From Streptomyces caelestis (GTDB taxonomy: Bacteria; Actinomycetota; Actinomycetes; Streptomycetales; Streptomycetaceae), in NCBI RefSeq assembly GCF_001279005.1, contig NZ_LGCN01000001.1, positions 62,001 to 126,000 of the forward strand: 64,000 bases of DNA. Reading direction: 5' to 3'. A model generated the notes under the pieces. That model worked only from the letters and a program-made list of their open reading frames with translations. It was not told the DNA's origin and made no database searches. Every line of letters begins with the position of its first letter. Position 1 is the first letter of the stretch. Below are positions 5,258-61,008 of the stretch, piece by piece. A program made the position numbers and the translations under genes.

Positions 5258-5279
5258 GGGCGCGCCTACCTCACAGGTC

Positions 5280-5531: not shown

Positions 5532-5601
5532 GCAAACAGCTCGGTAGTACCGGACAATCCGGGCGAAAGTCCAGGTGGGGCAGCGAAAACCAGGGAAGGT
5601 C

Positions 5602-5618
5602 GTGTCGCGTCGTGACAC
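5602..5618 (+). promoter_or_regulatory. 17-bp near-palindrome, right copy 2
   Basis: Identical in all 17 bases to the copy at 2869-2885. It lies 62 bases before the TTG start of the gene at 5680, so that gene may share control with parAB. Confidence 0.55.
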
Positions 5619-5679
5619 GAGAACAGGCCGCCATGCGCTACGGTGATCCACAGCCTTACGGACACACACTGGAGACGCC

Positions 5680-24228: not shown

Positions 24229-24494
24229 CAGTGCTCCCCCTCCGCTGCTGGACCGGCCGTCCAAGTGTCCCCGGTCGAAGCCCTTCAGGGGAGACCCCGG
24301 GGGCAGGTGGATGACCGCTGGATGACCGCGAGGCCACTCGAGATGACGACAGCGATCTTCCTGCCGCTGTCTACCGGCGGTCTCCTTGAGGGCGGCCAAC
24401 TGGCGCGTCCGTAGAACCCGGACGGAGCGAGGTCTCGGCCGCATGAAGCCGACTTGTCGTGAGCCTGGGATGTGCACGTCGACGAGGGGGAAGA
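24229..24494 (+). promoter_or_regulatory. divergent intergenic region, regulator / NRPS operon
   Basis: A 266-base region between the putative regulator (minus) and the first synthetase gene (plus). It must hold the promoter of at least the synthetase operon. I cannot point to convincing -35/-10 boxes or an operator. Confidence 0.35.
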
Positions 24495-27400
24495 ATGGCG
24501 TCTGCACCGACTGAACGGGCCGATCTCGGACGGCCGTGCACGCGCCGGGCCGATACAGCCCCCGACCGCGGGTCTCATCGGCTGACGGTGTCATCCCTCA
24601 CCCGCCCGCCCGTCGGCTGGACGGGTGCAGCGGCCGACTTCGACGCCGGCCTGCTCGCACGAACGGCGTTCGCGGTCGTCTTGGCGATCAGCTCCGGCGT
24701 CGAAGACGTGCGGATGGTGTGCAGCACCACCGCGGCTGGGGAGCCATCGCGGGTTGAGGCTCTGCAGGTGCTTCCGCAGACCCCGATCCGCCACCTCTCC
24801 GCACGGTGGGCCGACAGCTCGCCGGCTCGGGCCGAGGTCGGCGGGCTCCCGCGCCTTCAGCAGCTGATCGACTCCAGTGCGCTTCCGACGTTTCACTTGT
24901 TGGCCGCCGGGCAGACCCCACCCCCGGCGCTGTCTCCACTCGCCTGCTCGGTCCGTGTCACTCCGGCGCGCTGGGAGTGGACCCTCAGCGCTCTGCCCAG
25001 TGCCGCCGACGAAGACAGGCTGTGGGCACTCGCCAGACTGGTCGAATCCGTATTGCATTCTCTGGCTGCTGCACCGAACCTGACCGTGGCGCAGGCCGCG
25101 GAGCAGGCCGAGCCGCTGGGCTTCGAGATCCAGGTCCTGGGTGGTGCCGGCCTCGCTGACGTGACCACTGCGCTTCAGGGTTGGGGGTACGCGGTCGGGC
25201 TGCCCGTGAGGGTGCACCGCGTCGAGACCGAGCAGACGCAGGCGTCCGGGCCAGCTGGGGGATGGGTCCGGCCGACGGCGTGCAGAGCCAACCTCGTCGT
25301 CCTTGAGCAGGGCCTCGGTAGCCTCCCGCAGCCGAGGTCCGAGGACGCCCCGGGAGGTGAGGACGCGCTGGGGGCCGACCTGGGAGTGCTGCCGGACGGC
25401 CGCGCGATCGCGCAGACGAACGCGAACGAGACGCGTGAGCTCTACGACGAGATCGTCGTCCGCAACCAGTACCTACGACACGGCGTACAGCTCTGCGACG
25501 GCGACACCGTCGTCGATGTTGGGGCCAACATCGGGATGTTCGCACTGTTCGCCGCCGCGCAGGCGAGCAAGGTCACGATCCACGCTTTCGAGCCGGTCCC
25601 CGTCGTGGCCCGCGCCCTGCAGACGAACATGAGCCTGTACGGGATCAGCGGCACGGTGAGCTGCGCTGCCGCCGGAGCGAGCGCAGGCGTCCGCGCGCTC
25701 ACCTTCTACCCGCAGTCGTCGCTGCAATCCGGCTTCTACGCCGACGCCGAGGGCGACCAGCACATCGTGGGGGAGTACGCGCGCCACCAAGCCGACGCAC
25801 TTCCCGGACTCCCCGCCGAGCTGCGAGCGGCCGCCGCCGATGCTCTCGCGCCGACAGCCCGCGCACGTACGGCCGAGCGGCAGGAGCTCCAGGTTCCGGT
25901 GATCCGCCTGTCGGACTGGATCCGCGACAACGCTGTGCGCCGCATTGACCTCCTGAAGGTCGACGCCGAGCGCGCAGAGGAGGACGTCCTCGCCGGGCTC
26001 GACGACGAACATTGGCCCCTGATCGGTCAGGTCGTCGCCGAGGTCCACGACCGGGACGGACGGATGGACAGGCTCCGGACCCTCCTTCAACGCTGGGGCT
26101 TCGAGACGGTCGTCGAGCAGGACGCGCTGTTCGCCGGATCGGAGATCTACATGCTGTACGGTCTGCGGCCCGGTGCCTCGCGCCCCGAAGCGCCGTGGAT
26201 GGAGCGCCAGATCGCGGCCGCCGAACGCTGGGCCCAGACCTCAGCCCTGCCGCTGTACGTGACCGCTCGTCCCGGCGCGATGCCCGCCGAGACGCGGATC
26301 GCCCGTCAGGCCGTCGCAGCCCGCGCCCTGACCTGGGTCGAGCCGCCACCCCTCCCGCCAGCCGACGTCGCTGCCGAGAGGCCGCGTGTGGTGCTGGCGT
26401 GGGCAGAGAGGGTGCTGCGACGGATGACCTCCGTGCATCGGCCGGTGGTCAAGGCCGTGGTCGTGGACGGTGACAACACACTGTGGGGCGGAGTGTGCGG
26501 CGAAATAGGACCCGAGAACGTGGAAACGGGCGGCCCCTACCGGCTGGTGCAGGAGGCGCTGCGCGCGCAGCTGGAGGCAGGGCGGGTGCTGTGCCTGTGC
26601 TCGCGCAACAACCCGGCCGACGTGGAAGCGGTGTTCGCCACTCACCCGGACATGCCGCTCAGCCTGCAGGACTTCACGGTGGTGCGAGCGGGCTGGTGCC
26701 CGAAGTCCGTCGCCGTCGGTGAGATCGCCGAGGAGCTCGGCTTTGCGGTGGAGTCGCTGGTCTTCGTCGACGACAGCGCGGCCGAGCGGGCCGAGGTGGC
26801 CATCGCGCACCCGGGAGTCACAGTCGTCGACCTGCCCGCCGAGGCTGAGGAGTTCACCGCCGCCCTGCGCGGTACGTGGCAGCTGGCGTTGGAGGGCACC
26901 GGGACCGCGGAGGACCGTGCGCGGACGGCCCTGATCGCAGGGGAGGCCCGGCGCCGGAGGACTGCGGCGCAGGCGGCGACGACGGCCGAGTACCTGGAGC
27001 AGCTGGACCTCCGTGTGGAGGTGTCCGAGGCGACGGACGACGAGGTGGAGCGGATCGCGCAGCTCGCGGCCCGCACCACCCAGTTCAACCTGGCGCTGCG
27101 CGTCCACACGCCGGGTACGGTCCGTCAGGTGCTCGCGTCCGCCGGGGTGGCGTTGTCGGTCCGGGTGCGCGACCGCTTCGGTGACTACGGGCTGGTCGGC
27201 TTCGCCTCGGCCGATGCCGACGGCCGGGTGCTGCGGGTGAGGGACTTCTTCGTCAGCTGCCGCGCCCTGGGTCGCAACGTCGAGTGGTGCGTCCTGCGGG
27301 AGCTGGCCGGGCGGGCCGGGCCTCTCGGCCTGGACGGCATCGCTCTCACCAGCACGCCGGGCCCGCGCAACCGGCCCGCCCTGGAGTTCGCGGACGCTGC

Positions 27401-29243
27401 CCGGACCCGGTTCAACCTCTCGGATGCGCTCGATCTGGTGGATGCTTCGGCGGCCGCGAGCTTGGACTGGCGGCTCCTCACTTCGCCGCAGACCGCCGCC
27501 GCGGCCCCGATCGCCAGTCAGTGCCCGCCCACCAGGGTTCCGTCGCGGGTGCGCTGGCCCGTCTCGCAGCAGGCCGCCGCGCGGGCCGCTGAGGCCTACC
27601 GGCGCCCCGGCGAGACGACGTCCACCACCCCCTACGTCGCGCCGCAGACCGAGACGGAGCGCCGGATCGCTGCGGTGTGGGAGGAGGCGCTCGAGGTCGC
27701 GCCGATCGGCGTCCACGACGACCTTTTCATGTTGGGTTGCGACTCGCTGACCGCCGCGGTGATCTGCGCGCGCCTTCGCCAACACGGAGTGGAGCTGGCG
27801 GTCCACGAGCTTCTGGCGCATCCGACCGTCCGCGGGGCGGCCCGGCAGGCGGGCGCGGAGCTGCGGCCGGCCATCGAGCTGCCGGCGGACGCGGAGGCCG
27901 GGCCGGCGTCGCTCGGGCAGCAGCGCGTCTGGGCGGCGGAGGCGATCGGCGGGCGCGGAAACGCTCAGGTCATCCCCCTGGCGTACCGGATCGCCGGCCC
28001 GCTCGATCTCGGCCGGCTCCGCTCGGCGCTGGAGGGGTTCGTCGCCCGGCACCCGGCCCTGCGCACTGTGCTGGTCGACGGCGGCGGGGCGCTGGTGCAG
28101 CGCCGGCTGACCGCCGGTGAGGGGGTCGGCATCGAGGTTCACGAGGTGTCGAGCCTGCCGGAGACCGAGCGTCCCGGCCGGGCGGATCTGCTGGCGCGCC
28201 GGTTCTTCTCGGCGAGGTTCGACATCGGCCGGGACGTGATGCTGCGCGCGGCCGTGCTGCGGTTGGGCCCGGACGACCATGTGCTGCTGCTGATGCTGCA
28301 CCACAGCGCGGGCGACGGTTGGTCCGTCGACATCCTCCAGCGCGACCTGGGCGCCCTGTACGCGGACCCCAAGGCCCTGGCCGGCGTGCCGGTCGGTGCG
28401 ACGTTTGCCCAGTACAGCGCCGCGGCCGTTCGGCGGCGTGAGAGCGGCGCGTTCGACCAGGGCGCGGCCGCCGTCCGCGCCGCGCTCGACCGGGCGTCCG
28501 CCCGCCCCTGGAGCACGCCCTCCGGTCTGCCCTTCGAGCCCCGCCACCTTCGCTTCGCACTGGACTCCGATCTTCTGGCTTCGTTGCGGGCGGCGGCGCG
28601 AAGCCGGTCTGTCACCCCGGTCGCGGTCCACCTCGCTGCCTGGCAGCTTCTGCTCGCGGTCGCGGCCGACACGGATGCGGTGGTGACAGGCTGCGCGGTC
28701 GCGGGCCGTAACGAGGAGGTGTTCGCCGACACGGTCGGCTTCTTCGCCAACCTCGTGCCCGTCCCTGTCCACTTCGACTGGTCCGCCACCGCAGGCGGGT
28801 TCCTCAGTACGGCAGTTGCCGCCGTGGCTGAGGCGCTGACCTACGCCGAGGTGCCCTACGGGCTGGTCGCCGACGGTGCCGGGGCGGTCTTCGACACGCT
28901 CTTCACCCTGCAGCCACCCGCCACGCACCCGCTGCGCTTCGACGGCTGCGCCATCACGGGCAGCGAACCGGCCCTGTGGCCGGTGCCGTACCCGCTGATG
29001 CTCGACGTCCAGGAACACGCCGACGGCGCCAGCGCGCTGCTGCGGTTCGACGCCCGCGCCCGTCACCCCGTGGATCCGCCGTGGCTGGCCGAGGCGTACC
29101 CGCTCGTCCTGGCCGCGCTCTGCACCCTGCCCGAACTGCCCCTGCAGCGACTGCGGGATCTCCTGCGGCCCGGTACCGCCACTGTGCACGACCTGGTCCG
29201 TGACCGATTGGCCAACCTGCGAGAGGACGGCGAACCCCGGTGA
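24495..29243 (+). CDS. hybrid loading NRPS: FkbM methyltransferase-FkbH-PCP-C
   Basis: A 1582-residue assembly-line protein. Residues ~1-260 are unrecognised. ~290-560 is an FkbM-type SAM methyltransferase (VVDVGANIGMFALFAA, HAFEPVP, IDLLKVDAE). ~650-1020 is an FkbH-like HAD domain (VVVDGDNTLWGGVCGE near 655; QFNLALRVH and DRFGDYGLVGF near 870-910), the type that loads glyceryl from 1,3-bisphosphoglycerate onto a carrier. ~1050-1125 is a peptidyl carrier (MLGCDSLTA, Ser site). ~1140-1560 is a condensation domain with intact HHSAGDG (~1270). No adenylation domain, so the starter is probably glycerate-derived and perhaps O-methylated. ATG 24495 has GAGGGGG upstream. GTG 24459 is an alternative. 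Couples to the next gene by GTGA overlap. Confidence 0.88.
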   Translation: MASAPTERADLGRPCTRRADTAPDRGSHRLTVSSLTRPPVGWTGAAADFDAGLLARTAFAVVLAISSGVEDVRMVCSTTAAGEPSRVEALQVLPQTPIRHLSARWADSSPARAEVGGLPRLQQLIDSSALPTFHLLAAGQTPPPALSPLACSVRVTPARWEWTLSALPSAADEDRLWALARLVESVLHSLAAAPNLTVAQAAEQAEPLGFEIQVLGGAGLADVTTALQGWGYAVGLPVRVHRVETEQTQASGPAGGWVRPTACRANLVVLEQGLGSLPQPRSEDAPGGEDALGADLGVLPDGRAIAQTNANETRELYDEIVVRNQYLRHGVQLCDGDTVVDVGANIGMFALFAAAQASKVTIHAFEPVPVVARALQTNMSLYGISGTVSCAAAGASAGVRALTFYPQSSLQSGFYADAEGDQHIVGEYARHQADALPGLPAELRAAAADALAPTARARTAERQELQVPVIRLSDWIRDNAVRRIDLLKVDAERAEEDVLAGLDDEHWPLIGQVVAEVHDRDGRMDRLRTLLQRWGFETVVEQDALFAGSEIYMLYGLRPGASRPEAPWMERQIAAAERWAQTSALPLYVTARPGAMPAETRIARQAVAARALTWVEPPPLPPADVAAERPRVVLAWAERVLRRMTSVHRPVVKAVVVDGDNTLWGGVCGEIGPENVETGGPYRLVQEALRAQLEAGRVLCLCSRNNPADVEAVFATHPDMPLSLQDFTVVRAGWCPKSVAVGEIAEELGFAVESLVFVDDSAAERAEVAIAHPGVTVVDLPAEAEEFTAALRGTWQLALEGTGTAEDRARTALIAGEARRRRTAAQAATTAEYLEQLDLRVEVSEATDDEVERIAQLAARTTQFNLALRVHTPGTVRQVLASAGVALSVRVRDRFGDYGLVGFASADADGRVLRVRDFFVSCRALGRNVEWCVLRELAGRAGPLGLDGIALTSTPGPRNRPALEFADAARTRFNLSDALDLVDASAAASLDWRLLTSPQTAAAAPIASQCPPTRVPSRVRWPVSQQAAARAAEAYRRPGETTSTTPYVAPQTETERRIAAVWEEALEVAPIGVHDDLFMLGCDSLTAAVICARLRQHGVELAVHELLAHPTVRGAARQAGAELRPAIELPADAEAGPASLGQQRVWAAEAIGGRGNAQVIPLAYRIAGPLDLGRLRSALEGFVARHPALRTVLVDGGGALVQRRLTAGEGVGIEVHEVSSLPETERPGRADLLARRFFSARFDIGRDVMLRAAVLRLGPDDHVLLLMLHHSAGDGWSVDILQRDLGALYADPKALAGVPVGATFAQYSAAAVRRRESGAFDQGAAAVRAALDRASARPWSTPSGLPFEPRHLRFALDSDLLASLRAAARSRSVTPVAVHLAAWQLLLAVAADTDAVVTGCAVAGRNEEVFADTVGFFANLVPVPVHFDWSATAGGFLSTAVAAVAEALTYAEVPYGLVADGAGAVFDTLFTLQPPATHPLRFDGCAITGSEPALWPVPYPLMLDVQEHADGASALLRFDARARHPVDPPWLAEAYPLVLAALCTLPELPLQRLRDLLRPGTATVHDLVRDRLANLREDGEPR

Positions 29244-32200
29244 CCACCACGAGCCCCCGACCCGCCACCGCCACCACCGTGTGGCAGATCGACGCCACCG
29301 ACGGCCCGACCGTCGCACCGGCCGCACCGCAGCACCTCCACCTGGCCTCCCACCCCGAGGCCGCCTTCACGGCCCCGATACTCGAACTGCGGCTGACCGG
29401 ACCGCTGGACGCCGACCGGCTCCGCGCGGCCGCCGAGCACACCGTGCGCGAGCACCCCGCGCTGCGCCGTCGCCTCGACGCGACCGCCGCCGACGGGGCG
29501 CAGCCGCTGGTCCGGCTCGTCCGCCTCGCCTCCGGCAGCCACACCCTCTGCCTGAGCCCGGCGCTCGGCTCGATGGACACCACCGGCCTCCTGCGCGCCG
29601 CCTCGGCCGTCGCCGCCGGCTACCGGACCAAGGCCGCGGCCGGGGCGAGCGGTCCGGACCCGCAGACCGTCGACGCCTTCCTCACCGGCCTGCTCACCGA
29701 CCCAGGAGCCGCCGCCGGCCGCGAGCACTGGCAGACCCGCCGGCTGGACACGACGGCCGAGGACCTGGCCCGCGCCCTGGTAATGCGCACCGCCACGCCC
29801 GGCCCGCGCCTGCACCTTCCCGTGCCGCTGGACGATGCTGCCGGAGACCGGCTCGTCCGCCTCGCCCGGGACCTCGATGTCGACGTGGACGACGTCGTGG
29901 TGACGGCGTGGCGGCTGCTGCTGAACCGGATCGCGCCCGGCGAGGACGGGGCCCTGGGCCTGTTCACCCCCGGACCGGTGGAGCAGCTGCCGGACACGAT
30001 CGGTCTGCTGGGCCGCTGCGTCCCCGTGCCGATACGCCCGCAGACCGCCGACACGCTCGCAGATACCGTCCGCGGCTGCCACCGCGAGAACGTGCTCGCC
30101 GCCCAGTTCGGCGACTTCTTCACCCACACGCAGCCGGGCGGCGAGTTCACCGTCGGATTCCGGCACGTGGATGCATCCCCGCTGGACTTCGGACCGGGCC
30201 TGGACGTCGCCGTCGAAGCGCTGCGGGCCGCGACCGACAGCATCCGCCTCGACCTGCACTCCCTGCACGTCGGCAGCCGGCTCCGCCTCACCGTGGACGC
30301 GGATCGCGCCGCCGTCACCGAGGAAAGCGCCCGCCGCCTGGCCGACTGGCTGGGCGCCCTGTGCACCGGCCTGCCGGAGCACATCGACGCCCCGGCCGAG
30401 GCCGCGGTCGCACGGATCCTGGACCCGCTCACCTCTGAGAGCCGCCTGCACGGCGCCGACCAGGCCGATTCCGGCACCGCGGCGCCCACCACGCTAGTGG
30501 AAGCGTTCGACGCCCAGGCGGCGCGCACCCCGGCCGCCTGCGCCGCCCGCGACGACGATCACGAGGTCACCTACCGAGAACTGCACGCCGCCAGCGCCGC
30601 GTTCGCCCGAACGCTGGCCGACCGGGGCGTGGCCGCCGGGGACCGGGTGGCCGTGTGCATGAGCCGCCGGGTGCCACTGCTGGCCGTGCTGCTGGCCGTC
30701 GCCCGCCGCGGCGCCGCGTTCGTGCCGATCGACCCAGCCCTCCCGGCCGGCCGGGTGACCGACCTGCTCGCCGACGCCGACCCGCGACTGCTCGTCACGG
30801 ACCAGCACCGCCCCGACCTCCCGCCGGGCGGCCGCACGCCCGTCCTGCGCATCGACGCGCTACCACCCGGCACCCCGGCGGCCGGACCGGAGCCGGTCGA
30901 GGCAGGGCCGGAGACGGACGTGTACGTGATCTACACCTCCGGCTCGACCGGCCGCCCCAAGGGCGTCCCCATCACCCATGCGGCGCTGATGAACTACCTC
31001 CGCTGGGCCTCACGCCACTACGGCACCTCGGACGGCAGCGGCACCCTGGCCCACTCGTCGATCAGCGTCGACATGACCATCACCAGCCTGTTCCTGCCGC
31101 TACTGACAGGCCAGGCCGTCACCCTGCTGCCCTCCGACGAGCCCACGGACCTGGCCACAGCCCTCACCCGGACCCGCGACCTGAGCCCGCTGAAGATCAC
31201 CCCCGGCGGCCTGCGCCTGCTCACCACCTTCCTGACCGGCGCCCAGATCACCGCAGCCACCCGGCACCTGGTCGTCGGCGGCGAACAGCTGACGGCCGCC
31301 ACCCTGAACCTCCTGGACGCACCCGGCCTGCTCGTCACCAACGAGTACGGACCCACCGAGGCCACCGTCGGCTGCTGCGCCCACACCCTGCGCCTGGGCG
31401 AGCACCCGGCGGCCGGCCCGGTGCCCATCGGCACACCGATCCACAACACGACGATCGAACTGCGCACGCCGGACGGCCGGCTCGCCCTCCCCGGCACCGC
31501 CGGGGAACTCGTCGTCACCGGGCCCGGTATCGCGGCCGGCTACCTGGACCGGCCCGTCGAGACCGACGCCCGCTTCACCACCGACCCGCACACCGGCACC
31601 CGCTCCTACCGGACCGGCGACCTCGCCCTCCTCGGTCCCGACGGGCAGCTGGTGATGCTCGGCCGCAGAGACGACCAGCTCAAGATCCACGGCTACCGCA
31701 TCGAACCCGGCGAGATCGAAGCCGTCCTGACCGGCCACCCCGACATCACAGCGGCCGCCGTCACCACCACCGGCGGCACACCGGTGCTCGCCGCGTTCCT
31801 CGTCCCCGCCCCCGGCGCCGACCCGGCCGCCCTTCCCGAGGCTGCAGCTGCGCTCGCGGCCGACCGACTGCCGTTCTACGCCCGCCCCGACCGGTACGAG
31901 GTCCTCGACCGGCTGCCGCTGCGCGGCAACGGCAAGATCGACCGCCGGGAGCTGGCCGAACACCCCGCGCCCGCCACCGGGGAGGAGGCGCTGGACGCGG
32001 CCGACCCGCAGCTCGCCGTGGTCGCCGCGCTGTGGAGCGAGGTCCTCTCCACGCCGCCGACCAGCCCGGACGCCAACTTCTTCGCCGAAGGCGGCGACTC
32101 CATTAAGGCGGTCCTGCTGGCCGGCCGGGCGCAGCGGGCGGGCCTGGAGCTGACCGTGCACGACATCCTTCAGCGCCGGACCCTGCGCCGGATCGCGGCC

Positions 32201-33432
32201 GCCGCGCGCCCGGCCGGCGTGCGGGACGCGGTAGAGCCCGGGCCTGTGCCGCTGACGCCCCACCAGGCCGGGTTCCTCGCGCACGCCGCCCCCCGACCCG
32301 AGCGGTGGACTGTGCGGTGGAGCGCTAACGCTCCCGCCCCGGTCGACACCGGGCGCCTGGAGCGGGCACTCGCCGCGACCGTCGCCGGGCATGAGGCGCT
32401 GTGGACGTCGTTCACGCACACGGGCGGCCGGTGGACGGGCCGGTTGGGCGAACCCGGCCCGGTGCCCGTGCACGTCCTCGACCTGGACGGCGTCCCGGCC
32501 GCCGAGCGGGAGCAGGCCGTGGCCACAGCCCTGGAGCGCGTGGAGGACGGGTTCGACCTCGCCGGCCGGCTGGTGGGCCTGTGCCTGATCCGTGCCGCCG
32601 GACAGGGGGAGAGCGTCGTGTGGATCGTCCACCACCTGGTCGCCGACGTCGTCTCCCTGCAGAGCCTGAACCAGGAGCTCTGGCACGCCTACGCGCACCC
32701 GGCCCAGCTGGTACAGCGGCGCGGGGACGGGTACGGGGTGTGGCTGCGGGACCAGGACGGACGGCCCGCGACGCTCTTCCCCACCTGGCTAGGGTCCGGC
32801 GGGCCGACCGCGTGCCGTACCGCCGTCTCGCGGCTGGGCGCGGGCGCCCGCCGGGCCCTGGCCGATGCGCAGCAGGACGCACCGCGATGGGTTCTCGCCG
32901 TGCTGGGGGCCGGGTTGCTGGGTGCGCTCGCCGAGGTGCGCCCGGACCTGCCGCCCGCGCTGTGCGCCGAGCTCCATGGCCGTGACCGTCCCGGGCTCGA
33001 CCTGGCGGCCGCGGTGGGCTGGCTCACCGACCTCCGGCCGCTGCGAGCCGAGCAGCATGTGCTGGGCGACCCGTCGGCGCTGGCCGCCGCCCTGCACCGC
33101 CGGATCGAGGAGCCCCAGGATTGGACGGGGGCGCTGCCGCCGGTGGCGCTGAACTACCTGGGCGACCTTCCGGCCGGCTGCGGCCCCGACCTTCCGGACG
33201 CCGCCGCGAACCCGCTGTTCGGCCTGGAGGCCGTGGTGTGGACCGGACCGGAGGCAGTCGAGGTCAGGTGGCGCTTCGACGAGGCGTTCATCCCGGCCCC
33301 CACCGTCCAACGCCTCGCTGACGCCTTCGCCCGCCGCGCGGCCGCCACGCTCACCATCCGCCCGCAGACCGCCACCGGGCCCGCCGGACTCTCGGCCGCC
33401 GACCTGAGCCGGATCACCGCCACGTTCGAGGG

Positions 33433-33436
<4 letters not shown>
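29240..33436 (+). CDS. NRPS: degenerate C-A(Asn-like)-PCP-epimerase
   Basis: A 1398-residue synthetase. Residues ~1-400 are condensation-like but lack HHxxxDG (SPALGSMDTTG is in its place), so are probably inactive. ~415-905 is an adenylation domain (YTSGSTGRPKG near 565, NEYGPTE, YRTGDL). Its specificity residues read D-M-T-K-V-G-E-V-G-K, close to Asn codes. ~920-985 is a carrier with GGDSIKA, the form that precedes epimerases. ~990-1390 is an epimerization domain: HHLVAD, LHGRD, GWLTDL and NYLG. Its HHxxxDG has Val for the final Gly. Expected output is a D-Asn-like residue. Specificity is a prediction from family codes. Coupled to both neighbours by 4-base overlaps. Confidence 0.9.
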
Positions 33437-38930
<5,494 letters not shown>

Positions 38931-38934
<4 letters not shown>

Positions 38935-40352
38935 CCGCGACCACCGCCGCCGGCGAGCCCTCGGCCGTCACCGACATCGCGCCGCTCTCGCCCGGCCAGG
39001 AGCGCCTGTTCGACGCCGAGTTCGTCCTGCCCGACGGCTCCTGGCCCACTCCGGGCACGCCGACCCGGCTGCGCCCGATCGACAGCGGCGCCATCCGCAT
39101 CGACGGTCCCCTGGACGTCGCCGCACTCCGGCGCGCCGTCACCGCGCTCGTGGCCCGGCAGTCCGCGCTGCGCACCACCTTCCGCCGGCGGCCCGATGGC
39201 GCGCCCGTCCAGCTCGTTACCAACCGCGCCCCGGACCCGATGAGCCTCGGGGCGCTCGACCTCGCGGCCGGGCAGCAGTTCCCCACGGCCGAGGAACTGC
39301 TGCGCCACGCTCCGGCCCGGCTGGTCGACCCCCGCCACGACCTGCTCTTCCGCGTCCACCTGCTGCGCCTGGACCAGGAGCGGCACGTCCTCCTGCTGCA
39401 GGTCCACCACGCCGTCAGCGACGGCTGGTCCATCGGCGTCCTCTACCGCGACCTGTCCGAGCTCTACAACGCCGCCCGGGCCGGGCGGGACGCGGACCTG
39501 CCCGCCATCCCCCGCAGCTTCGCCGCCCACAGCCGGCAGATGTGCGCCGAGCGCGGCGGCCCCGAGGAGCAGCGCCAGCTCGCCTACTGGCGCCGCCGAC
39601 TCGCCCCGCCGCTGCCTGGCCACCGGGCCGAGCCGCAGGCCGACGGCCTGAGCCCGGTGGACGTCGAACCGGTCCTCGTGCCGGCCGACCTCGTCCGGAG
39701 CCTGCGCGAGACCGCGGCCACCAGCGCGCAGCGCGGGGGCGTGGCCGGACCGTTCCTCGCCGCCCTCGCCTTGGTCCTGCACCGCGTCGACGGCGAGCGG
39801 GACGTGCGGATCGGCATGATGATCTCCAATCGGGCCCGGCCCGGAGCCGAGCACCTGATCGGCTACTTCGTGAACACCGCCGTGATCCGACTGCACGTCG
39901 ACCCGACGATGACCGCCGGGGATCTGGTGGCGCAGGCGAACACCGCCGTCACCGAGGCCATCGAGCACCAGGCCCTGCCCATCCAGGACCTCTACCAGAA
40001 CCTCTGCGACACCGGCGCCCTCGGGCCGGGCCCGCTGTACCGGGTGACGCTCGCGCTCAACACGATGCGCACCACCTCGCTCACCCTGGACGGCCTGCAC
40101 TGCCAGGACATCGACTTGGAGCGGGTCGGCCCACGCCGCGCGCCGACCAGCATCGAGCAGCGCTGGGTCCTGGACGAGCACGCCGGCCATCTTGCCGGAA
40201 CGCTGACCTGGCGCACCGACACCGCCACCCGGCCCGCCATCGCGGCCACGCTCACCGGCCTCGACCAGGCGCTGCGCGCCGTCACCCACCCCCGCACCAC
40301 CCTTGCTGACATCACCGCCACCCTGCCTACGCCCCGGCCGGAGGCCCGGTGA
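38931..40352 (+). CDS. free-standing NRPS condensation domain
   Basis: A 473-residue protein made only of a condensation domain. The active-site motif HHAVSDGW (~162-169) is intact, as are the YWRRRL and GYFVNT (latch/solvent-channel) regions. Free C domains can join a carrier-bound acid to a soluble amine, as VibH does. Since the line ends in a thiazolyl carrier and has no thioesterase, this protein is the best candidate for chain release by amide formation. That is inference. Overlaps the previous stop by ATGA and the next start by GTGA, so it is made in step with both. Confidence 0.88.
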
Positions 40353-41278
40353 GCACCGCCGCGGCAGGGGAGCCGCTCTCCGAGCTGGACGCCGCCGAGC
40401 TGCTCGACGCGTATGGCCTGACGTTGCGCCGGGCACGACCGCTGCCGGGCGGTATGGAGAACGCCCACATCAAGGCGCAGACGGCCACCGGCACGGTCGT
40501 GGTGACCGTGCTGAACAAGAAGTCGCCAGCGCAGGCCGAGGAGTACGCCCGCTTCCTGCGTCATCTGGAGCTCACCGGCGCCCCGGCACCGCGGCTGCGG
40601 CCGCTGCGCGCCGGCGGCTGGGTCACCCGGCACGGCGGTCGGCCGGTCATCGTGTGCGACTTCGTCGACGGGCGCAGCCCCGCCCGGCTACCGGTCCGCC
40701 TGGTCCACGAGGCCGGGCTCCTCCTCGGGCGGGTGCACCGCACTGCGGCGGCCGGCTTCGACAGTGCGCTGCCCCCGCATCTGCGGCTGCACGACGCCGA
40801 CGCCGACACCCTGGCCACGCTGCCCGATGGGGCGTTCGCCCAGTGGGCGCGCTCCACTTGGCACGCCGTCGGCCACGTCACCGAGCACGATGCCCCTCGC
40901 GTCCCGGTCCACGGCGACCTGTTCCCGGACAACATCGTCGTCCGCGGCGGCCGGGGCCTGATCTTCCTCGACTGGGAGGACGGCTCGCTGGACCTGCCCC
41001 ACTTGGACGTGGGGATGGCGTTGCTCGGCCTGTGCGGCCGACGCGGATTCTCCCCGAGACGCGCCCGCCACCTGCTGAGCGGCTATCAGCAGGGCAGCGC
41101 AGCCGAGCTGAACGGCGCTCTGGTGCGCGATGCGGCCCTGTACTCGGCCGTGCTCGTCGCGCTGCGCCGCCACCGCTGGCAGCGGGAGCACCGCCGCCTG
41201 CCCGCCGGACGCTCAGCCGCCGCCATGCACCACCTCGCGAACTCCCTGTCCGACCGCTGGCCGCACCCTCAGCCGTAG
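40349..41278 (+). CDS. APH/homoserine kinase II-like phosphotransferase
   Basis: A 309-residue kinase-like protein. The catalytic loop VPVHGDLFPDNIVV (~189-202) and metal-binding LIFLDWEDG (~208-216) are intact. The N-lobe has VVVTVLNKK with a Lys for ATP. It is closest in layout to the homoserine kinase type II/choline kinase group. In this operon it could phosphorylate a hydroxyl of the starter or of a building block, or inactivate the product for self-protection. GTG start overlaps the previous stop. A 65-base gap follows, the largest so far within the operon. Confidence 0.82.
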   Translation: MSTAAAGEPLSELDAAELLDAYGLTLRRARPLPGGMENAHIKAQTATGTVVVTVLNKKSPAQAEEYARFLRHLELTGAPAPRLRPLRAGGWVTRHGGRPVIVCDFVDGRSPARLPVRLVHEAGLLLGRVHRTAAAGFDSALPPHLRLHDADADTLATLPDGAFAQWARSTWHAVGHVTEHDAPRVPVHGDLFPDNIVVRGGRGLIFLDWEDGSLDLPHLDVGMALLGLCGRRGFSPRRARHLLSGYQQGSAAELNGALVRDAALYSAVLVALRRHRWQREHRRLPAGRSAAAMHHLANSLSDRWPHPQP

Positions 41279-41343
41279 GCCAGCCACCTGTGAGCCGCGC
41301 GCCCCGGCCGGGTGTGCCCCGATCCTGCAGAGAGCAGACCGCC

Positions 41344-42930
41344 ATGCCCCGTGATCTTGTCCTGGTCGTCGTCCCGCCGAACTCCAACACCGTCATCACC
41401 GGCCGGCTGCTGACCGTCACCCGCCCCGAGGAGCACTCCGACTGGTCGGACTTCCTGTGCCTGGGCGCACTGTCCCTCGTCTCCTCGCTGGCGACGAACC
41501 CCGCCCTGGAGCCGGTCTACATCGACGGCACGATCACGCCGCTGGACGACATCCTGGAGTGCATCACCGCCCACGCCGACCGGATCCTGGCGGTCTGCCT
41601 GGGCATGCTGACCGCGAACTACGAGGCCGGCGTCCTGATCGCCCGGCACGCCAAGGACACCGACGCCCGAATCACCACCGTGGCGGGCAACGACCACTTC
41701 AGCTCCCTGCCCACGGTGTGCATGAACGCGTCCCCCAGCCTGGACTACGGCTTCGTCGGCAACGAGGTCGTGGGGCCCTTCACCGACCTGATCGGCGCCC
41801 TGCGGGCTGAGGCGCCGATCGACCCGCCGGCGTTCCCGGGTCTGGTGTACCGCGCCGACGGCCTCGTCCACACCACCCCTACGCGGGCCGAGCCGGTGTT
41901 CTCCGGCTACGACTACACCCTGGTGGACCGGGTCTTCCCCCAGACGCCGCTGTACACCAGGCAGTTCGGCCACCGGATCGCCCCGCGCATCCACGAACTG
42001 CTCGGACGAACCGTCACGGCCGGCATGCCGGTCGACATCGGCCGCGGCTGCGTGAAGTTCGCCGCCGACGACGCCTGCTCCTTCTGCTCGATCCACCCCG
42101 GGCAGCTGTGGCGCAACCAGCTCACCCCTGCCCAGGCGTGGGCCGCCATCGAGGCCGCCTGGAACGCCGGCTACGACTACCACTACCTGACCGCCGACGA
42201 ACTGCCCCTGACGTTCGCCCAACTGCTGACCGGCATGGCCGCGGACACCCCCGCCTGGTGGTCCGCCCTCAGCGAGAACGAGCGGCCCCTCCTGGTCGGG
42301 TACGGCCGCGCCGACGGAATCGCCGACCCCCGCAAGACCGCGCTGCTCACCTCCCTCGGAGTGCGCCAGATCATGATCGGAATGGACGCCGGCGCCGCGA
42401 CATCCCTCGCCGCGATGAACAAGCCGGTCGGCGGCCGCCGCCGCAACGTCCTCGCGGAGGCCGAGAAGCTGTACGAACTCAACTCGCAGGCGATCACGGT
42501 CGCCCGCGACCACGGCATGCTGATCCGCGCCGGCTTCGTCGTCGGCCACATCGGCATGACCCGGGCCCTGCTGACCGAGAACCTCGAGCGGATCCTGGCC
42601 CTGATCACCGAAGGCGGCAAGCACGGCGTGTTCTCGGCGATCGACGCGGAGGTGCTCTCCCCGCAGCCCGGCGCCCGCGACTACACCTACCTCACCACCC
42701 CCGACGCCGCCCGGCAGGCTGCCGCGAAGCTCGGCCTCACGGTCGCCGACGACGCCACCCTCGCTGCGGTCTCGGCCCGCTGGGCACACCAAGACGTGGT
42801 GATGCCGGAGGACGCGATGCGGGACTACACCCTCGCGCTGATGCCCGAGATCACCTTCGACGACCTCGCCCAGGCCCGTGCCACGATCCGCTCCCACGCC
42901 AAGGCGTGCGGCGTGGTCATCGGCGAATGA
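41344..42930 (+). CDS. cobalamin-binding radical SAM enzyme
   Basis: A 528-residue enzyme. Residues ~1-150 form a B12-binding-like Rossmann domain (VPPNSNT; a Val/Leu-rich beta pattern, and GNDHFSSLP near 120). Residues ~210-420 form a radical SAM barrel. The cluster ligands appear as GCVKFAADDACSFCS (~238-252), that is C-x8-C-x2-C, wider than the classical C-x3-C-x2-C. Later motifs include TADELPL, MIGMDAG (~345) and FVVGHIGM (~400). Members usually do methylations or rearrangements at unactivated carbon. ATG at 41344 follows AGAGAGCAGACC. It is probably a backbone-tailoring step of the peptide. Exact reaction unknown. Confidence 0.85.
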   Translation: MPRDLVLVVVPPNSNTVITGRLLTVTRPEEHSDWSDFLCLGALSLVSSLATNPALEPVYIDGTITPLDDILECITAHADRILAVCLGMLTANYEAGVLIARHAKDTDARITTVAGNDHFSSLPTVCMNASPSLDYGFVGNEVVGPFTDLIGALRAEAPIDPPAFPGLVYRADGLVHTTPTRAEPVFSGYDYTLVDRVFPQTPLYTRQFGHRIAPRIHELLGRTVTAGMPVDIGRGCVKFAADDACSFCSIHPGQLWRNQLTPAQAWAAIEAAWNAGYDYHYLTADELPLTFAQLLTGMAADTPAWWSALSENERPLLVGYGRADGIADPRKTALLTSLGVRQIMIGMDAGAATSLAAMNKPVGGRRRNVLAEAEKLYELNSQAITVARDHGMLIRAGFVVGHIGMTRALLTENLERILALITEGGKHGVFSAIDAEVLSPQPGARDYTYLTTPDAARQAAAKLGLTVADDATLAAVSARWAHQDVVMPEDAMRDYTLALMPEITFDDLAQARATIRSHAKACGVVIGE

Positions 42931-42961
42931 ACCCGACCGCCCCCGCCGGGAAGGAGACGTC

Positions 42962-43672
42962 GTGCACCTGACCCCCGCCGAGCAGGGCCGGCTGCTGCTG
43001 TACACGGCCACCCTGCTGGCCCGCGAGCGCCACCAGCGTGGCGTGAAGCTCAACGTGCCCGAGGCGACCGCGCTCATCGCCCACGCCGCGTGCGAGGCCG
43101 CCCGGGACGGCGGCCGGCTCGAGGACGCGGTCGCCGCCGGGCGCGCGGCCCTCACCGCCGCGGACGTGCTGCCCGAGGTGCCGGGCATCCTCACCGAGAT
43201 CCAGGTCGAGGCCGTCTTCCCCGACGGCTCCAAGCTCATCGTCATCACCCACCCCCTCGGGCCGCCCGCCAACCCGGCCCATGCCCCCGGCGCCGTCCTT
43301 CCCGCCGACCATCCGCCGCCCGAGCTGGCCGACATCATGCGGATCGAGGTCACCAACACCGCAGGGGTGCCGGTCACCGTCACCTCGCACTTCCACTTCT
43401 TCGAGGCCAACCGCGCCCTGGCCTTCGACCGCCGCGCCGCCTACGGCCGCCACCTCGCCCTGCCCGTCGGCACCAGCACCCGCTTCGAACCCGGCACCAC
43501 CCAGCAGGTCGCGCTGACCCCGATCGGCGGCGCCCGAATCGTCATCGGCTTCGCCGGTCTGGTGGACGGCCCGCTGGACGCCCCCGGCGCCCGCGAGACC
43601 GCGCTCACCCGCGCCCACGTCGCCGGCTACCTCGACACCGGCCCCACCACCGACCAGGAAGGCGACCTGTGA
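42962..43672 (+). CDS. ureAB-like: urease-like gamma-beta fusion subunit
   Basis: A 236-residue fusion of urease gamma (~1-100: LTPAEQGRLLLYTATLLARE, LNVPEATALI) and beta (~125-225: VTVTSHFHFFEANRALAFD, STRFEPGTTQQVAL). GTG start with GAAGGAGACGTC upstream. Such fusions occur in actinobacteria. It overlaps the alpha subunit gene by 4 bases, so subunits would be made together. Genes for nickel insertion (ureD/E/F/G) are absent from the window. Presence in an NRPS operon suggests an amidohydrolase or decarbamoylase role on a pathway intermediate rather than urea use. That is inference. Confidence 0.9.
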   Translation: MHLTPAEQGRLLLYTATLLARERHQRGVKLNVPEATALIAHAACEAARDGGRLEDAVAAGRAALTAADVLPEVPGILTEIQVEAVFPDGSKLIVITHPLGPPANPAHAPGAVLPADHPPPELADIMRIEVTNTAGVPVTVTSHFHFFEANRALAFDRRAAYGRHLALPVGTSTRFEPGTTQQVALTPIGGARIVIGFAGLVDGPLDAPGARETALTRAHVAGYLDTGPTTDQEGDL

Positions 43673-45342
43673 GCAGCCACCTCACCTACGCGCAGCAGCA
43701 CGGCCCCACCACCGGCGACCGCGTCCACCTGGCCGACACCGGCCTGACCCTGCGCGTCGAAGCCGACGCCCAACGCTCGGGCGACGAGTTCCTGACCGGC
43801 TACGCCAAGACCGGCCGCGACGGCATCCACTACCAGGCCCGCCTCACCGACCGGACCTGCGATCTGATCGTCAGCAACGTCCTGCTCGTCGACCCCGTCC
43901 TCGGCATCCGCAAGGCCTCGATCGGCATCAAGGACGGACGCATCGCCGCCGTCGGCCGCGCCGGCAACCCCGACACCCTGGAGGGCGTCGACGTCCTCGC
44001 GGGCACCGGCACCACCGTCATCCCCGGCGAAGGCCTCATCGCCACCCCCGGCATCGTCGACACCCACGTCCACCTCTGCTCCCCAGGCATCATGCGCGCC
44101 GCCCTCGCCTCCGGGGTCACCACAATCGTCTCCCAGAACTTCGGCCCGACCTGGGGCTGCGGCATCACCAGCCCCGCCGAACTGCGCCACGCCCTGCGCG
44201 CCTTCGACGCCTTCCCCGTCAACATCGCCCTGCTGGCCCGCGGCTCCTCCTCCCACCCGGACCCGCTGCTACGCGCCCTGGAGCAGGGCGGCGCCTCCGG
44301 GTTCAAAGTCCACGAGGACATGGGCGCCCACGCCCGCGCCCTGGACACCGCCCTGACCGTCGCCGACGACCACGACGTCCAGGTCGCGCTGCACAGCGAC
44401 ACCCTCAACGAGGCCATGTTCGTCCAGGACACCCTCGCGGTCATCGGCGGCCGCACCCTGCACGCCTTCCACGTCGAGGGCTGCGGCGGCGGCCACGCCC
44501 CGAACGTCCTGCATCTGGCCGGCCTGGCGAACATCATCGGGTCCTCCACCAACCCGAGCCTGCCCTACACCCGCGACACCGCCGCCGAGCACCTGAACAT
44601 GATCGCCACCGTCCACCGGCTCGACCCGGACGACCCCGACTGCCGGCGGATGGCCCACGACCGGATCCGCACCAGCACGCTCGGCGCCGAGGACGTCCTC
44701 CATGACCTCGGGGTCATCCCCATCACCTCCTCCGACTCCCAGGCCATGGGCCGCATCGGAGAGACCGTCCGCCGCACCTTCGCCATCGCCGCCAAGATGC
44801 GCGCCCTAGACCCCGAACCGCGCGGCGACGACAACGAACGCGTCCTGCGCTACATCGCCAAGCTCACCATCAACCCGGCCATCGCCCACGGCATGGCCCA
44901 CGAGGTCGGCGCGCTCACCCCCGGCCGCCTCGCGGACATCGTGCTGTGGAACCCCGCCTACTTCGGTGCCAAGCCGCAACTCGTCCTCAAGGCCGGCTAC
45001 CCCGCCTGGGGCGCCACCGGCGACCCCAACGCCTCCACCGAGACGAGCCAGCCCCTCGTCCTCGGGCCGCAGGTCGGCGCGTACGGCGCGACCGCAGCCG
45101 ACCTGTCTGTCGCCTTCGTCAGCCGGTCCGCGCACGACAGCGGCACCGACACCCTGCCGACCCAGCGCCGCCGGGTCGCCGTCCGCGACACCCGCACGAT
45201 CGGCCTGGCCGACATGAACCGCAACGACCGACTCAGTGACGTCCGCGTCCACCCGGACACCGGACGGGTCACCCTCGACGGCAATCCCATCAACTCCCCG
45301 CCCGCCCAGGCCACCGCCCTCAGCCAGCTCTACTTCCTGTAA
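43669..45342 (+). CDS. ureC-like: urease-like alpha subunit with altered flap
   Basis: A 557-residue amidohydrolase. All nickel-site residues are present: THVH (~132), GFKVHED (carbamylated Lys and next His, ~212), VALHSD, HAFHVEG (~265) and SSDSQAMGR (Asp, ~358). The mobile flap, normally VCHHL, reads TVHRL (~314): Cys is replaced by Val and the second His by Arg, while the catalytic His stays. So metal binding and acid catalysis can survive but substrate preference has probably changed. Some Streptomyces carry a second, accessory-gene-free urease pair of this kind, with unknown role. Coupled to the gamma-beta gene by a GTGA overlap. Confidence 0.9.
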   Translation: MSSHLTYAQQHGPTTGDRVHLADTGLTLRVEADAQRSGDEFLTGYAKTGRDGIHYQARLTDRTCDLIVSNVLLVDPVLGIRKASIGIKDGRIAAVGRAGNPDTLEGVDVLAGTGTTVIPGEGLIATPGIVDTHVHLCSPGIMRAALASGVTTIVSQNFGPTWGCGITSPAELRHALRAFDAFPVNIALLARGSSSHPDPLLRALEQGGASGFKVHEDMGAHARALDTALTVADDHDVQVALHSDTLNEAMFVQDTLAVIGGRTLHAFHVEGCGGGHAPNVLHLAGLANIIGSSTNPSLPYTRDTAAEHLNMIATVHRLDPDDPDCRRMAHDRIRTSTLGAEDVLHDLGVIPITSSDSQAMGRIGETVRRTFAIAAKMRALDPEPRGDDNERVLRYIAKLTINPAIAHGMAHEVGALTPGRLADIVLWNPAYFGAKPQLVLKAGYPAWGATGDPNASTETSQPLVLGPQVGAYGATAADLSVAFVSRSAHDSGTDTLPTQRRRVAVRDTRTIGLADMNRNDRLSDVRVHPDTGRVTLDGNPINSPPAQATALSQLYFL

Positions 45343-45373
45343 CCCAGGCCCGAGACATCCCAGGAGCGCCCGC

Positions 45374-46198
45374 ATGTCCCTCACCAGCCCAGCCCGCGAC
45401 CTCCTCGACCGCAGCCACGCGACGATCCCCCTGCCCGCCGAAGACGCCGAGGTCCTCGCGGACCTGCGCACCCACGCAGCGCGGTTCTTCACCCAGGACG
45501 AGGAGACCAAGCTCCGGCACGGCAGCAGCGACTTCAACTTCGGCTACCGGCCCTACGGGCGCCAGTACTCCGTCAGCCCCGAACGGCCCGACATGAACAG
45601 CTCGTTCACCTACTGGGCGAACGACCCGGCCAAGGTCCCCGGGCACGAGGCCGACACCGTCGCACCGTTCCTCAAGGCCATGGCCAGGTACTGGCGGGTC
45701 GCCGCCCACGCTGCCGACCAGGTGCTGGCCGGCCTGGCGGCCCACTACGGCTACCACGACGACCTGCAATTCCGCACCTCGTCCTACCTGGAGATCAACT
45801 GGTACCTCCGCGAACCCGAGCGAGACCTCCTTCAGGACCGCCACGAGGACGGCCACCTGTTCACCCTCGCCACCTCCGACGGCCCCGGACTGGAGATCGA
45901 GACCGACGGAGAGATGAAGCAGGCGACCGTCGGAGACGGCCGCCTGCTCGTCATGCCCGGCAGCGTGCTCACCGCGATGACCGCCGGCCACATCCCGCCG
46001 CTCTACCACCAGGTCCGCAACCACCAGCTGCAGCGGCGCATCACCACACTCTTCCTGGTCAACCCCAGGCTGGACCGGAACATCGCCCCCTACGCCACGG
46101 CAGGGGGCGAAGCCGTGGACGTCGCGGCACTGGCACGGACCAGCGGCTCGATGTTCGGGCTGCCCCCGGCACCGGTCCTGGCCCCGCCCACCGTCTGA
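45374..46198 (+). CDS. 2-oxoglutarate/Fe(II)-type oxygenase
   Basis: A 274-residue enzyme with the isopenicillin N synthase-like double-stranded helix. YLEINWYLRE is followed by RHEDGHLFTL (~154-164, His-x-Asp iron ligands) and LYHQVRNHQLQRRITTLFLV (~212-232, distal His and the Arg for 2-oxoglutarate). Last gene of the synthetase operon, 31 bases after the alpha subunit. Likely hydroxylates or desaturates the peptide or an amino acid building block such as Asn. It converges with the minus-strand kinase-like gene with only 17 bases between, and I see no terminator. Confidence 0.82.
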   Translation: MSLTSPARDLLDRSHATIPLPAEDAEVLADLRTHAARFFTQDEETKLRHGSSDFNFGYRPYGRQYSVSPERPDMNSSFTYWANDPAKVPGHEADTVAPFLKAMARYWRVAAHAADQVLAGLAAHYGYHDDLQFRTSSYLEINWYLREPERDLLQDRHEDGHLFTLATSDGPGLEIETDGEMKQATVGDGRLLVMPGSVLTAMTAGHIPPLYHQVRNHQLQRRITTLFLVNPRLDRNIAPYATAGGEAVDVAALARTSGSMFGLPPAPVLAPPTV

Positions 46199-50878: not shown

Positions 50879-50921
50879 GGCGAAGAGGACTCCTCGAAGT
50901 GGGCTGACGGGGGCAGAGGGG

Positions 50922-51806: not shown

Positions 51807-51830
51807 GGGTTTCTCCGGCCGTCGGGCTGG

Positions 51831-55069: not shown

Positions 55070-55102
55070 CGTGCTGCTCCTCGTACGTAGGCGTGGCGGT
55101 GT

Positions 55103-57845: not shown

Positions 57846-57969
57846 CCGTAACTCCTTGTCGTGTGCGGCTGGTGTGCCGGTGGGGGGTAGGGCCTGAGCA
57901 GGTTGGCCACCCCCGCCTGGTCCGTGGGGTCCGGGGCATACAGTTCGACGGCGATCCCAGGAGGTGTGG

Positions 57970-60906: not shown

Positions 60907-61008
60907 GAGGCACCTCCCTCGGCTCCGCCAGAAGCCCCCGCAACACGTACCTGGGCTCAGCCTGGGCCCGCCGGCCGAATCCGCTACCGGTGAGTGTGCT
61001 CACCCTGC

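What the first reader, a model, noticed from the sequence alone, without database searches (positions are those of the whole stretch)
24495..46198. Unassigned NRPS cluster predicted to make a glycerate-started, thiazole-containing peptide
Nine plus-strand genes, mostly with 4-base overlaps. Module order reads FkbM-FkbH-PCP-C / (inactive C)-A(Asn-like)-PCP-E / C-PCP-Cy-A(Cys-like)-PCP-Ox / free C, with B12 radical SAM, urease-like and 2OG-oxygenase tailoring. I know of no described pathway with this set.
Basis: partly seen in the sequence, partly recalled or inferred. Interest (0 to 1): 0.9.

Follow-up and report, generated by a model that had tools for sequence, protein, structure and literature searches.

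The report
Peptide gene cluster with borrowed urease
This is a complete, conserved but apparently undescribed actinobacterial gene cluster that probably builds a small glycerate-asparagine-thiazole peptide, and it has taken in a urease-like enzyme that may do something other than split urea.

Summary
Nine plus-strand genes lie at 24495-46198 with the stated domain order; five of eight junctions are 4-base overlaps. The conserved unit is larger: a regulator, the nine genes, an APH-type kinase and, in four of five loci, a tyrosine-phosphatase gene. The same order occurs on four actinobacterial plasmids. A search with the first protein lists 30 full-length-type relatives (47-89% identity), then a sharp drop; none carries a product name. 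Predicted backbone: (O-methyl)glyceryl, D-Asn, an unassigned residue, Cys-derived thiazole, possibly released onto an amine by the stand-alone C domain.

The surprising part is the urease pair. It belongs to a branch apart from canonical urease: metal ligands kept, flap Cys lost, a Trp in the pocket loop. An agmatine-deiminase-family gene lies alongside in 14 of 14 sampled loci of the sister branch and 0 of 15 canonical loci. In the window's genome no other UreC, no UreD and no UreG over cut-off were found. I infer a hydrolase for a substituted urea, matured without the usual nickel chaperones. No product or activity is shown, MIBiG could not be searched, and ten capped full-text searches listed no paper on such a cluster.

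The parts
22888..24594 (-). NsdA-family TPR-like regulator (ORF limits; the true start is probably inside)
   Evidence: NF053720 234 bits, cut-off 75; 90% and 80% identical at the same place in L013 and L014, 28% and 26% in L015 and L016
24495..29243 (+). G1: unassigned N-terminal stretch, FkbM, FkbH, PCP, C (HHxxxDG kept)
   Evidence: PF05050, PF00550, PF00668, TIGR01686 and TIGR01444; motifs aligned in five clusters
29240..33436 (+). G2: C without HHxxxDG, A (Asn-like), PCP, E
   Evidence: Pfam; motifs in five clusters
33433..38934 (+). G3: C, PCP without own A domain, Cy (DxxxxD), A (Cys-like), PCP, Ox (nitroreductase family)
   Evidence: Pfam; motifs in five clusters
38931..40352 (+). G4: stand-alone condensation domain, HHxxxDG kept; candidate chain-release enzyme
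   Evidence: PF00668; best PDB relatives Txo2 and 'Special condensation domain in NRPS'
40349..41278 (+). G5: APH-fold kinase, homoserine-kinase-like
   Evidence: PF01636, PRK05231 79 bits, under its cut-off 271, PDB 2ppq; aligned
41344..42930 (+). G6: cobalamin-type radical SAM protein
   Evidence: Model of its 99% relative P0001, pLDDT 93.2; Foldseek best TsrM 6wte E 5e-20; VIA Z AprD4 25.1, OxsB 23.5, MgmA 22.8, TsrM 22.5; C236, C245, C248 (P0001 numbering) invariant in 36 homologues
42962..43672 (+). G7: fused urease gamma-beta subunit (UreAB)
   Evidence: PRK13192 276 bits, cut-off 243; SHFHFFE kept in five clusters
43669..45342 (+). G8: urease alpha-like subunit (UreC), non-canonical branch
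   Evidence: PRK13207 707 bits over 354, but TIGR01792 606 under 680; tree; residues
45374..46198 (+). G9: 2-oxoglutarate/Fe(II) oxygenase, isopenicillin-N-synthase-like superfamily
   Evidence: Weak PF14226/PF03171, under their cut-offs; 2OG oxygenases, mostly of plants, in PDB; RHED and a later H kept in five clusters
46216..46953 (-). APH-type phosphotransferase, at the same place in all five loci (61-96% identity)
   Evidence: PF01636
47329..48396 (-). Y_phosphatase3 tyrosine-phosphatase-family protein, next to the APH gene in four of five loci (not found in Embleya L015)
   Evidence: PF13350; 59-86% in L013, L014, L016

Best explanation
A conserved NRPS gene cluster for a small modified peptide. 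Shown by sequence: the enzymes and their order. Inferred, in steps: (1) FkbH loads glycerate from a glycolytic phosphoglycerate onto the first PCP and FkbM may O-methylate it. (2) The C domain at the end of G1 joins it to Asn on G2, whose own C is inert; E turns Asn to D. (3) G3 passes the chain to a PCP without its own A domain, which may be loaded by the Cys A domain (as in yersiniabactin, recalled) or by a building block from the tailoring genes; Cy and Ox make the thiazole. (4) With no thioesterase, the stand-alone C (G4) releases the thiazolyl thioester onto a free amine, as the terminal C of bacillamide synthetase does with tryptamine. (5) G6, a B12-type radical SAM protein, and G9 modify a building block, probably a free amino acid or amine. 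(6) The UreAB-UreC pair hydrolyses a substituted urea (carbamoyl) group on that amine or on the peptide rather than urea, with metal loading that does not need the usual chaperones. (7) Two kinases and a phosphatase hold the product in a phosphorylated form as self-protection or as a biosynthetic handle. Steps 5-7 are the least certain.
For: Domains and motifs. Whole order conserved in five loci, with G6-G8 more conserved (69-80%) than G1-G4 (49-60%) in the two distant loci. Discrete family: besides the window's own entry, one search lists 30 full-length-type relatives of G1 at 47-89%, one partial protein, then a drop from 1334 to 575 bits (E limit 1e-150; only the 7992 candidates sharing most words were scored). 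Glycerate loading and methylation by OMT/MT-FkbH-PCP modules is described for aeruginosins (PMC10143770, passages). Bacillamide: Cy-A-PCP-C with tryptamine as the free amine (PMC8795117, passages). Urease branch: the five cluster rows form one clade (100/99), sister to the 13 second-branch rows (97/95), together split 100/100 from 15 canonical UreC. Agmatine-deiminase-family gene in the about 1.5 kb held on either side in 14 of 14 second-branch loci (one, L032, gave the query) and 0 of 15 canonical loci (PF04371 confirmed on one). Loop Trp and loss of the flap Cys in 18 of 18 cluster/second-branch rows, 0 of 15 canonical rows; checked ligands kept in all 33. Own genome: one UreC, no UreD hit, UreG only 23.7 bits against a cut-off of 204. 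Of 150 same-genus genomes, UreG in 0 of 4 whose only UreC match is of this kind, 33 of 37 whose only match is of canonical score, 0 of 9 without UreC (Fisher for the first two p 7e-4). In 3 of 5 contexts looked at, G6 relatives (36-49%) sit beside a LysE or EamA exporter, once also beside a tRNA-editing gene.
Against: No product, expression or activity is shown. All 12 second-branch genomes in the sample of 26 also have UreD and UreG hits, and 96 of the 100 genomes with two or more UreC matches have UreG, so chaperone sharing is possible there. The '0 of 4' includes the window's own genome, and the genomes are related. UreE and UreF were not searched. The link to agmatine deiminase is neighbourhood only, is a property of the sister branch, and no such gene was seen in the cluster. 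G6 neighbours come from distant relatives in other contexts; 2 of 5 show no such exporter. AprD4, the best VIA match of G6, does not use cobalamin (recalled). The A-less PCP and G4's partner are unassigned. No exporter or thioesterase was found in the conserved block.
Confidence: 0.5

Rival explanations
1. G7/G8 is an ordinary urease carried along: it supplies ammonia/CO2 or buffers pH, and does not touch the peptide.
For: Checked metal ligands and the H320 and R336 equivalents are kept; PRK13207 over its cut-off.
Against: Distinct branch; flap Cys lost and Trp in the pocket loop; TIGR01792 equivalog cut-off not reached; no UreD and no UreG over cut-off in the host; kept inside the cluster in five loci.
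Confidence: 0.2
2. G6 makes a non-protein amino acid that is loaded on the A-less PCP of G3 and so becomes part of the backbone; the urease pair trims that residue.
For: An A-less C-PCP module exists in all five clusters; G6's best Foldseek match is TsrM, an enzyme for free tryptophan; G6 relatives beside LysE/EamA exporters and a YbaK/ProX-type tRNA deacylase suggest free amino-acid analogues.
Against: No stand-alone A domain was found in the conserved block; the Cys A domain could load both PCPs.
Confidence: 0.25
3. The cluster makes an already known compound whose genes are described in literature or databases I could not search.
For: MIBiG and subscription journals were not searchable; paper listings were capped.
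Against: No product name among the rows listed for relatives; nothing in the ten listings.
Confidence: 0.2
4. Glyceryl-D-Asn is a removable cap, as acyl-D-Asn is in colibactin/zwittermicin-type prodrugs (recalled), and the active part is downstream of it.
For: A(Asn)-PCP-E right after the starter.
Against: No peptidase or exporter is annotated within the conserved block.
Confidence: 0.08

Closest known systems
Aeruginosin-type glycerate loading modules (suomilide, varlaxin)
   Same: A methyltransferase-FkbH-PCP starter that loads and methylates glycerate; in varlaxin followed by an amino acid and E (PMC10143770 passages)
   Different: Those also sulfate the glycerate and go on to other residues; here Asn and thiazole follow and no sulfotransferase was found by Pfam in G1
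Bacillamide synthetase (BmdA/B/C)
   Same: PCP-Cy-A-PCP plus oxidase making a Cys thiazole, chain condensed with a free amine by a C domain (PMC8795117 passages)
   Different: Here the releasing C would be a separate protein, Ox is fused, an acylated D-Asn lies upstream, and no amino-acid decarboxylase was found in the block
Bleomycin synthetase (recalled)
   Same: Asn A code, Cys Cy/Ox thiazole, terminal amine added by a free C
   Different: Polyketide, His, Thr and sugar genes of bleomycin were not found in the block; glycerate starter; urease-type genes
Klebsiella-type nickel urease UreABC with UreDEFG
   Same: gamma, beta and alpha subunit homology and metal ligands
   Different: separate branch, loop Trp, no flap Cys, no UreD and no UreG over cut-off in the genome
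Helicobacter mustelae iron urease
   Same: a urease-fold enzyme with a metal other than nickel (PMC3816311 passage); chaperone independence is recalled
   Different: hydrolyses urea (recalled); 'Urease subunit beta 2' entries are not the closest by sequence
TsrM, OxsB, TokK, CysS, MgmA (cobalamin radical SAM) and AprD4
   Same: overall fold of G6
   Different: 11-18% identity; Cx8CxxC spacing instead of Cx3Cx2C; substrate unknown

Membership tests
Modular NRPS gene cluster | A, PCP with Ser, catalytic C domains in a co-directional operon | tested here: met
FkbH glyceryl-loading enzyme | TIGR01686 over its cut-off, HAD motif and Cys of GG(V/I)CGE | tested here: met
   244.7 bits over 146.65; Cys kept in five clusters, HAD Thr is Met in L016
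FkbM O-methyltransferase acting on glycerate | SAM-binding motif and methylation of glyceryl-PCP | tested here: inconclusive
   Motif D(V/I)GANIG kept; the reaction is not testable here
Thiazole-forming module | Cy DxxxxD, Cys-like A code, oxidase | tested here: met
   code read by eye
Urease alpha (TIGR01792 equivalog) | Score over the curated cut-off | tested here: not met
   606 against 680
Urease alpha | Metal ligands incl. the Lys that is carbamylated | tested here: met
Urease | Flap Cys319 and canonical urea loop | tested here: not met
   Val/Ala at the Cys column and Trp in the loop in 18 of 18 rows; loop four residues shorter in the 6 such rows shown
Nickel urease | Maturation genes in the genome | tested here: not met
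   UreD none, UreG none over cut-off; UreE and UreF not searched
Urease | Hydrolysis of urea | not testable with these tools
   needs an enzyme assay
Cobalamin-dependent radical SAM enzyme | Overall fold of the class | tested here: met
   (model of P0001)
Cobalamin-dependent radical SAM enzyme | Binding of cobalamin | not testable with these tools
   AprD4, which shares the fold, does without it (recalled)
Cobalamin-dependent radical SAM enzyme | Canonical Cx3Cx2C motif | tested here: not met
   Three invariant Cys spaced Cx8CxxC in 36 rows
Known described cluster (MIBiG) | Same domain order and tailoring set | not testable with these tools
   MIBiG not held

The most novel reading that the evidence does not exclude
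The cluster contains a urease-fold complex that is not a urease: it hydrolyses a carbamoyl-amine or similar group during nonribosomal peptide biosynthesis, is matured without UreDEFG, and is sister to a widespread, apparently uncharacterised branch whose partner is agmatine deiminase (that is, a urease-fold carbamoylputrescine-type hydrolase).
Probability: 0.35. Interest if true: 0.82.

Novelty: new variant of a known kind. Interest (0 to 1): 0.66.

Why it matters
Ureases are treated as dedicated urea hydrolases needing nickel chaperones. A urease pair inside a peptide pathway, in a genome where no UreD, no UreG over cut-off and no other UreC were found, and sister to a branch next to an agmatine-deiminase gene in all 14 sampled loci, would give the fold a second job and a testable substrate class. 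It also marks a family with at least 30 related first genes (the whole cluster was checked in five loci only) and an unknown, probably thiazole-containing product.

Tried and rejected
MIBiG-like look-up: not possible; replaced by names of relatives and papers. G6 in genomes: 4 of 295 (genus), 2 of 394 (family), 1 of 396 (phylum) genomes, the window's own included each time; the three others are G074 (49%), G177 (48%) and G166 (27%). In the stretches of these three that I fetched, and in Nocardia L007, no other cluster gene was found at E 1e-8, so I rejected that these mark the same pathway. The genome-contig scan gave that one Nocardia hit. The sequence search of G6 in PDB gave only weak hits to SH3-type adaptors, so a fold was predicted. 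PMC9397018 (passages) mentions agmatine deiminase and urease but does not link them. The iron-urease search listed two papers; only PMC3816311 was opened (passages). PMC11546977 (passages) gave no case of a stand-alone C adding an amine. PMC8949500 (passages) supports FkbH in NRPS generally. Paper listings were capped: one search counted 593 papers and showed 15, none of which held 'urease-like'; one search showed 10 of 12, 12 of 17. In one search a wrong motif filter lost all canonical and four of 13 second-branch rows; redone. In one search the L014 ORF starts were too long; L014 G3, G4 and G6 were re-cut by coordinates. L039 was left out of the tree by hand, because its UreC comes in two pieces. 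labels as H272 the neighbouring conserved His (277); the true H272 equivalent is His in the 10 rows shown.
Full report
OBSERVATION. The nine genes are real. Starts and junctions were read from the sequence: GTG/ATG starts with 4-base overlaps at five of eight junctions. G6 is the B12-type radical SAM protein, G7 a fused urease gamma-beta subunit, G8 urease alpha and G9 a 2OG oxygenase. G6 gave no Pfam family at E 1e-3 and only a weak BzaD hit; its class rests on the fold.

MOTIFS. Across five clusters the C at the end of G1, the first C of G3 and G4 keep HHxxxDG; the first C of G2 has lost it in all five; the E domain keeps HHLVADxVS; Cy keeps DxxxxD; the PCPs keep their Ser. A-domain codes read by eye with recalled GrsA numbering are Asn-like and Cys-like; the Embleya versions match codes that I recall for Asn and Cys. 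L016 has Met where the HAD motif of FkbH usually has Thr.

CONSERVED UNIT. tblastn of G6 against plasmids gave six records. Four have the full order: S. anulatus NBC_01523, Kitasatospora NBC_01519, Embleya NBC_00888 and Streptomyces NBC_00637. The other two, Paraburkholderia sabiae and S. chartreusis, carry 44% and 36% relatives of G6 in other surroundings. A regulator on the minus strand upstream (NsdA family in the window) and an APH gene on the minus strand downstream accompany the nine genes in all five loci; in L015 and L016 the regulator is only 28% and 26% similar. A tyrosine-phosphatase-family gene follows in four of five. In the two distant loci G6-G8 are 69-80% identical to the window, G1-G4 49-60%. 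A protein search with G1 lists 33 entries: the window's own (P0210), 30 full-length-type relatives at 47-89%, one partial protein (P0238, 73% over 57%) and one at 35% over 56% (E limit 1e-150, only the 7992 candidates sharing most words scored). None has a product name. Hosts named there are Streptomyces, Kitasatospora, Embleya and Streptosporangium. The family is rare in species-level sampling: G6 was found in 4 of 295, 2 of 394 and 1 of 396 genomes, own genome included, and the other hits are 27-49% identical.

THE UREASE PAIR. G8 passes the PRK13207 subfamily model but not the TIGR01792 urease equivalog. In a tree of 33 UreC proteins the five cluster rows form one clade (100/99), sister to 13 'second-branch' proteins from the window's genus and other genera of its order (97/95); 15 canonical UreC lie apart (100/100). 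The eight positions checked are kept in all 33 rows, as is the H320 equivalent (one of the eight is the His next to H272). The flap Cys is Val or Ala in 18 of 18 cluster/second-branch rows and Cys in 15 of 15 canonical rows; a Trp sits in the active-site loop in 18 of 18 against Glu or Asp in 15 of 15. That loop is four residues shorter in the six cluster/second-branch rows shown than in the four canonical rows shown. Of the 29 loci of relatives delivered (42 match rows besides the window's own), all 14 of the second branch have an agmatine-deiminase-family gene in the about 1.5 kb held on either side and none of the 15 canonical ones does; 7 of the 14 also have a permease-like gene fragment. 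The deiminase and permease queries came from one of the 14 (L032). Pfam PF04371 was confirmed on L052; the permease was named by eye.

MATURATION. The window's genome (99.98% complete) has a single UreC, the cluster's. It has no UreD match, while 22 of 26 genomes do. Its best UreG score is 23.7 bits against a cut-off of 204, while 22 of 26 genomes are over it. In 150 same-genus genomes I classed each by the number and best E-value of its UreC matches and by UreG at E 1e-20 (129 of 150 have it). UreG is present in 0 of 4 genomes whose only UreC match is of cluster/second type (G000, G094, G112, G148), in 33 of 37 whose only match is of canonical score (missing in G028, G043, G069, G145; G010's is partial), in 0 of 9 without UreC, and in 96 of 100 with two or more UreC matches (missing in G017, G046, G088, G102). 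Fisher for the first two classes gives p = 7e-4. Caveats: the genomes are related; one of the four is the window's own; the canonical class rests on E-values, since not all match rows were listed; G148's lack of UreG follows from the tally, as it is the one unlisted row. Against the reading: all 12 second-branch genomes in the sample of 26 also have UreD and UreG hits, so there the chaperones could serve both types. UreE and UreF were not searched.

G6. The model, of the 99% relative P0001 (pLDDT 93.2; 36 of 89 homologues used), matches radical SAM enzymes of the cobalamin type: TsrM first by Foldseek, and AprD4, OxsB, MgmA, TsrM and CysS within about three Z units by VIA-align. AprD4 does not use cobalamin (recalled), so cobalamin binding is inferred. 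The three invariant Cys are spaced Cx8CxxC, which is unusual. Five contexts of 36-49% relatives were looked at: two sit beside LysE-type exporters (L009; Paraburkholderia L017), one between a YbaK-like tRNA-editing gene and an EamA exporter (S. chartreusis L018), and two show neither (Nocardia L007, with a P450; L011, with another radical SAM gene). This hints that the family acts on free amino acids; it is an inference from neighbours of distant relatives.

MECHANISM. Glycerate loading with methylation has precedent in aeruginosins (PMC10143770, passages). Release of a Cys-thiazole chain by a C domain onto a free amine has precedent in bacillamide (PMC8795117, passages). From this I propose (O-methyl)glyceryl-D-Asn-X-thiazole-amide, with G4 as the release enzyme. 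X is the residue on the A-less PCP: Cys, a G6-derived amino acid, or nothing if the PCP only relays. The urease pair then removes a carbamoyl group from the amine or peptide. Two kinases and a phosphatase point to a phosphorylated, protected form. These last steps are inference.

NOVELTY. Ten full-text searches listed no paper on such a cluster or on a deiminase-linked urease branch. Only listings were seen, some of them capped, except for the papers named above and under Tried and rejected, of which passages were seen. Subscription literature and MIBiG were not available. As an NRPS cluster it is a new variant of a known kind; the urease-fold enzyme could be more than that.

Noticed in passing
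window 50102-62478, minus strand: Genes of an FxLD-type peptide maturation system (52694-55069: TIGR04364 339 bits over 320) with PIG-L, glycosyltransferase, NUDIX, methyltransferases and MFS; relatives of several (43-63%) lie downstream of the same cluster on the S. anulatus plasmid L013.
   Followed up: partly
L028-L039, L052, L053: A second UreAB-UreC branch in the window's genus and order lies next to an agmatine-deiminase-family gene (14 of 14 loci; canonical 0 of 15); no description found.
   Followed up: yes
NZ_CP109408.1 at about 184 kb, 994 kb and 1532 kb (L014, L057): The Kitasatospora NBC_01519 linear plasmid carries three copies of G6; two lie inverted and at equal distance from the ends, as in terminal inverted repeats. 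L014 and L057 are 99.985% identical over 40.5 kb.
   Followed up: partly
L014 7909-12101: The G2 gene of this copy reads in two frames while the L057 copy reads in one; assembly error or real change not decided.
   Followed up: no
L018 11487-14534: A 36% G6 relative sits between a YbaK/ProX-type tRNA deacylase and an EamA exporter on an S. chartreusis plasmid, a possible amino-acid-analogue unit.
   Followed up: partly
L017 11989-14189: A 44% G6 relative with a LysE translocator among transposases on a plasmid of Paraburkholderia sabiae from a root nodule.
   Followed up: no
window 21188-22081, plus strand: Carbon-nitrogen hydrolase gene (PF00795) upstream; no match in the stretches held of the other four loci.
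   Followed up: partly
window 2001-6000: G+C falls to 0.61-0.64 against about 0.72 in most of the window, a possible inserted stretch.
   Followed up: no
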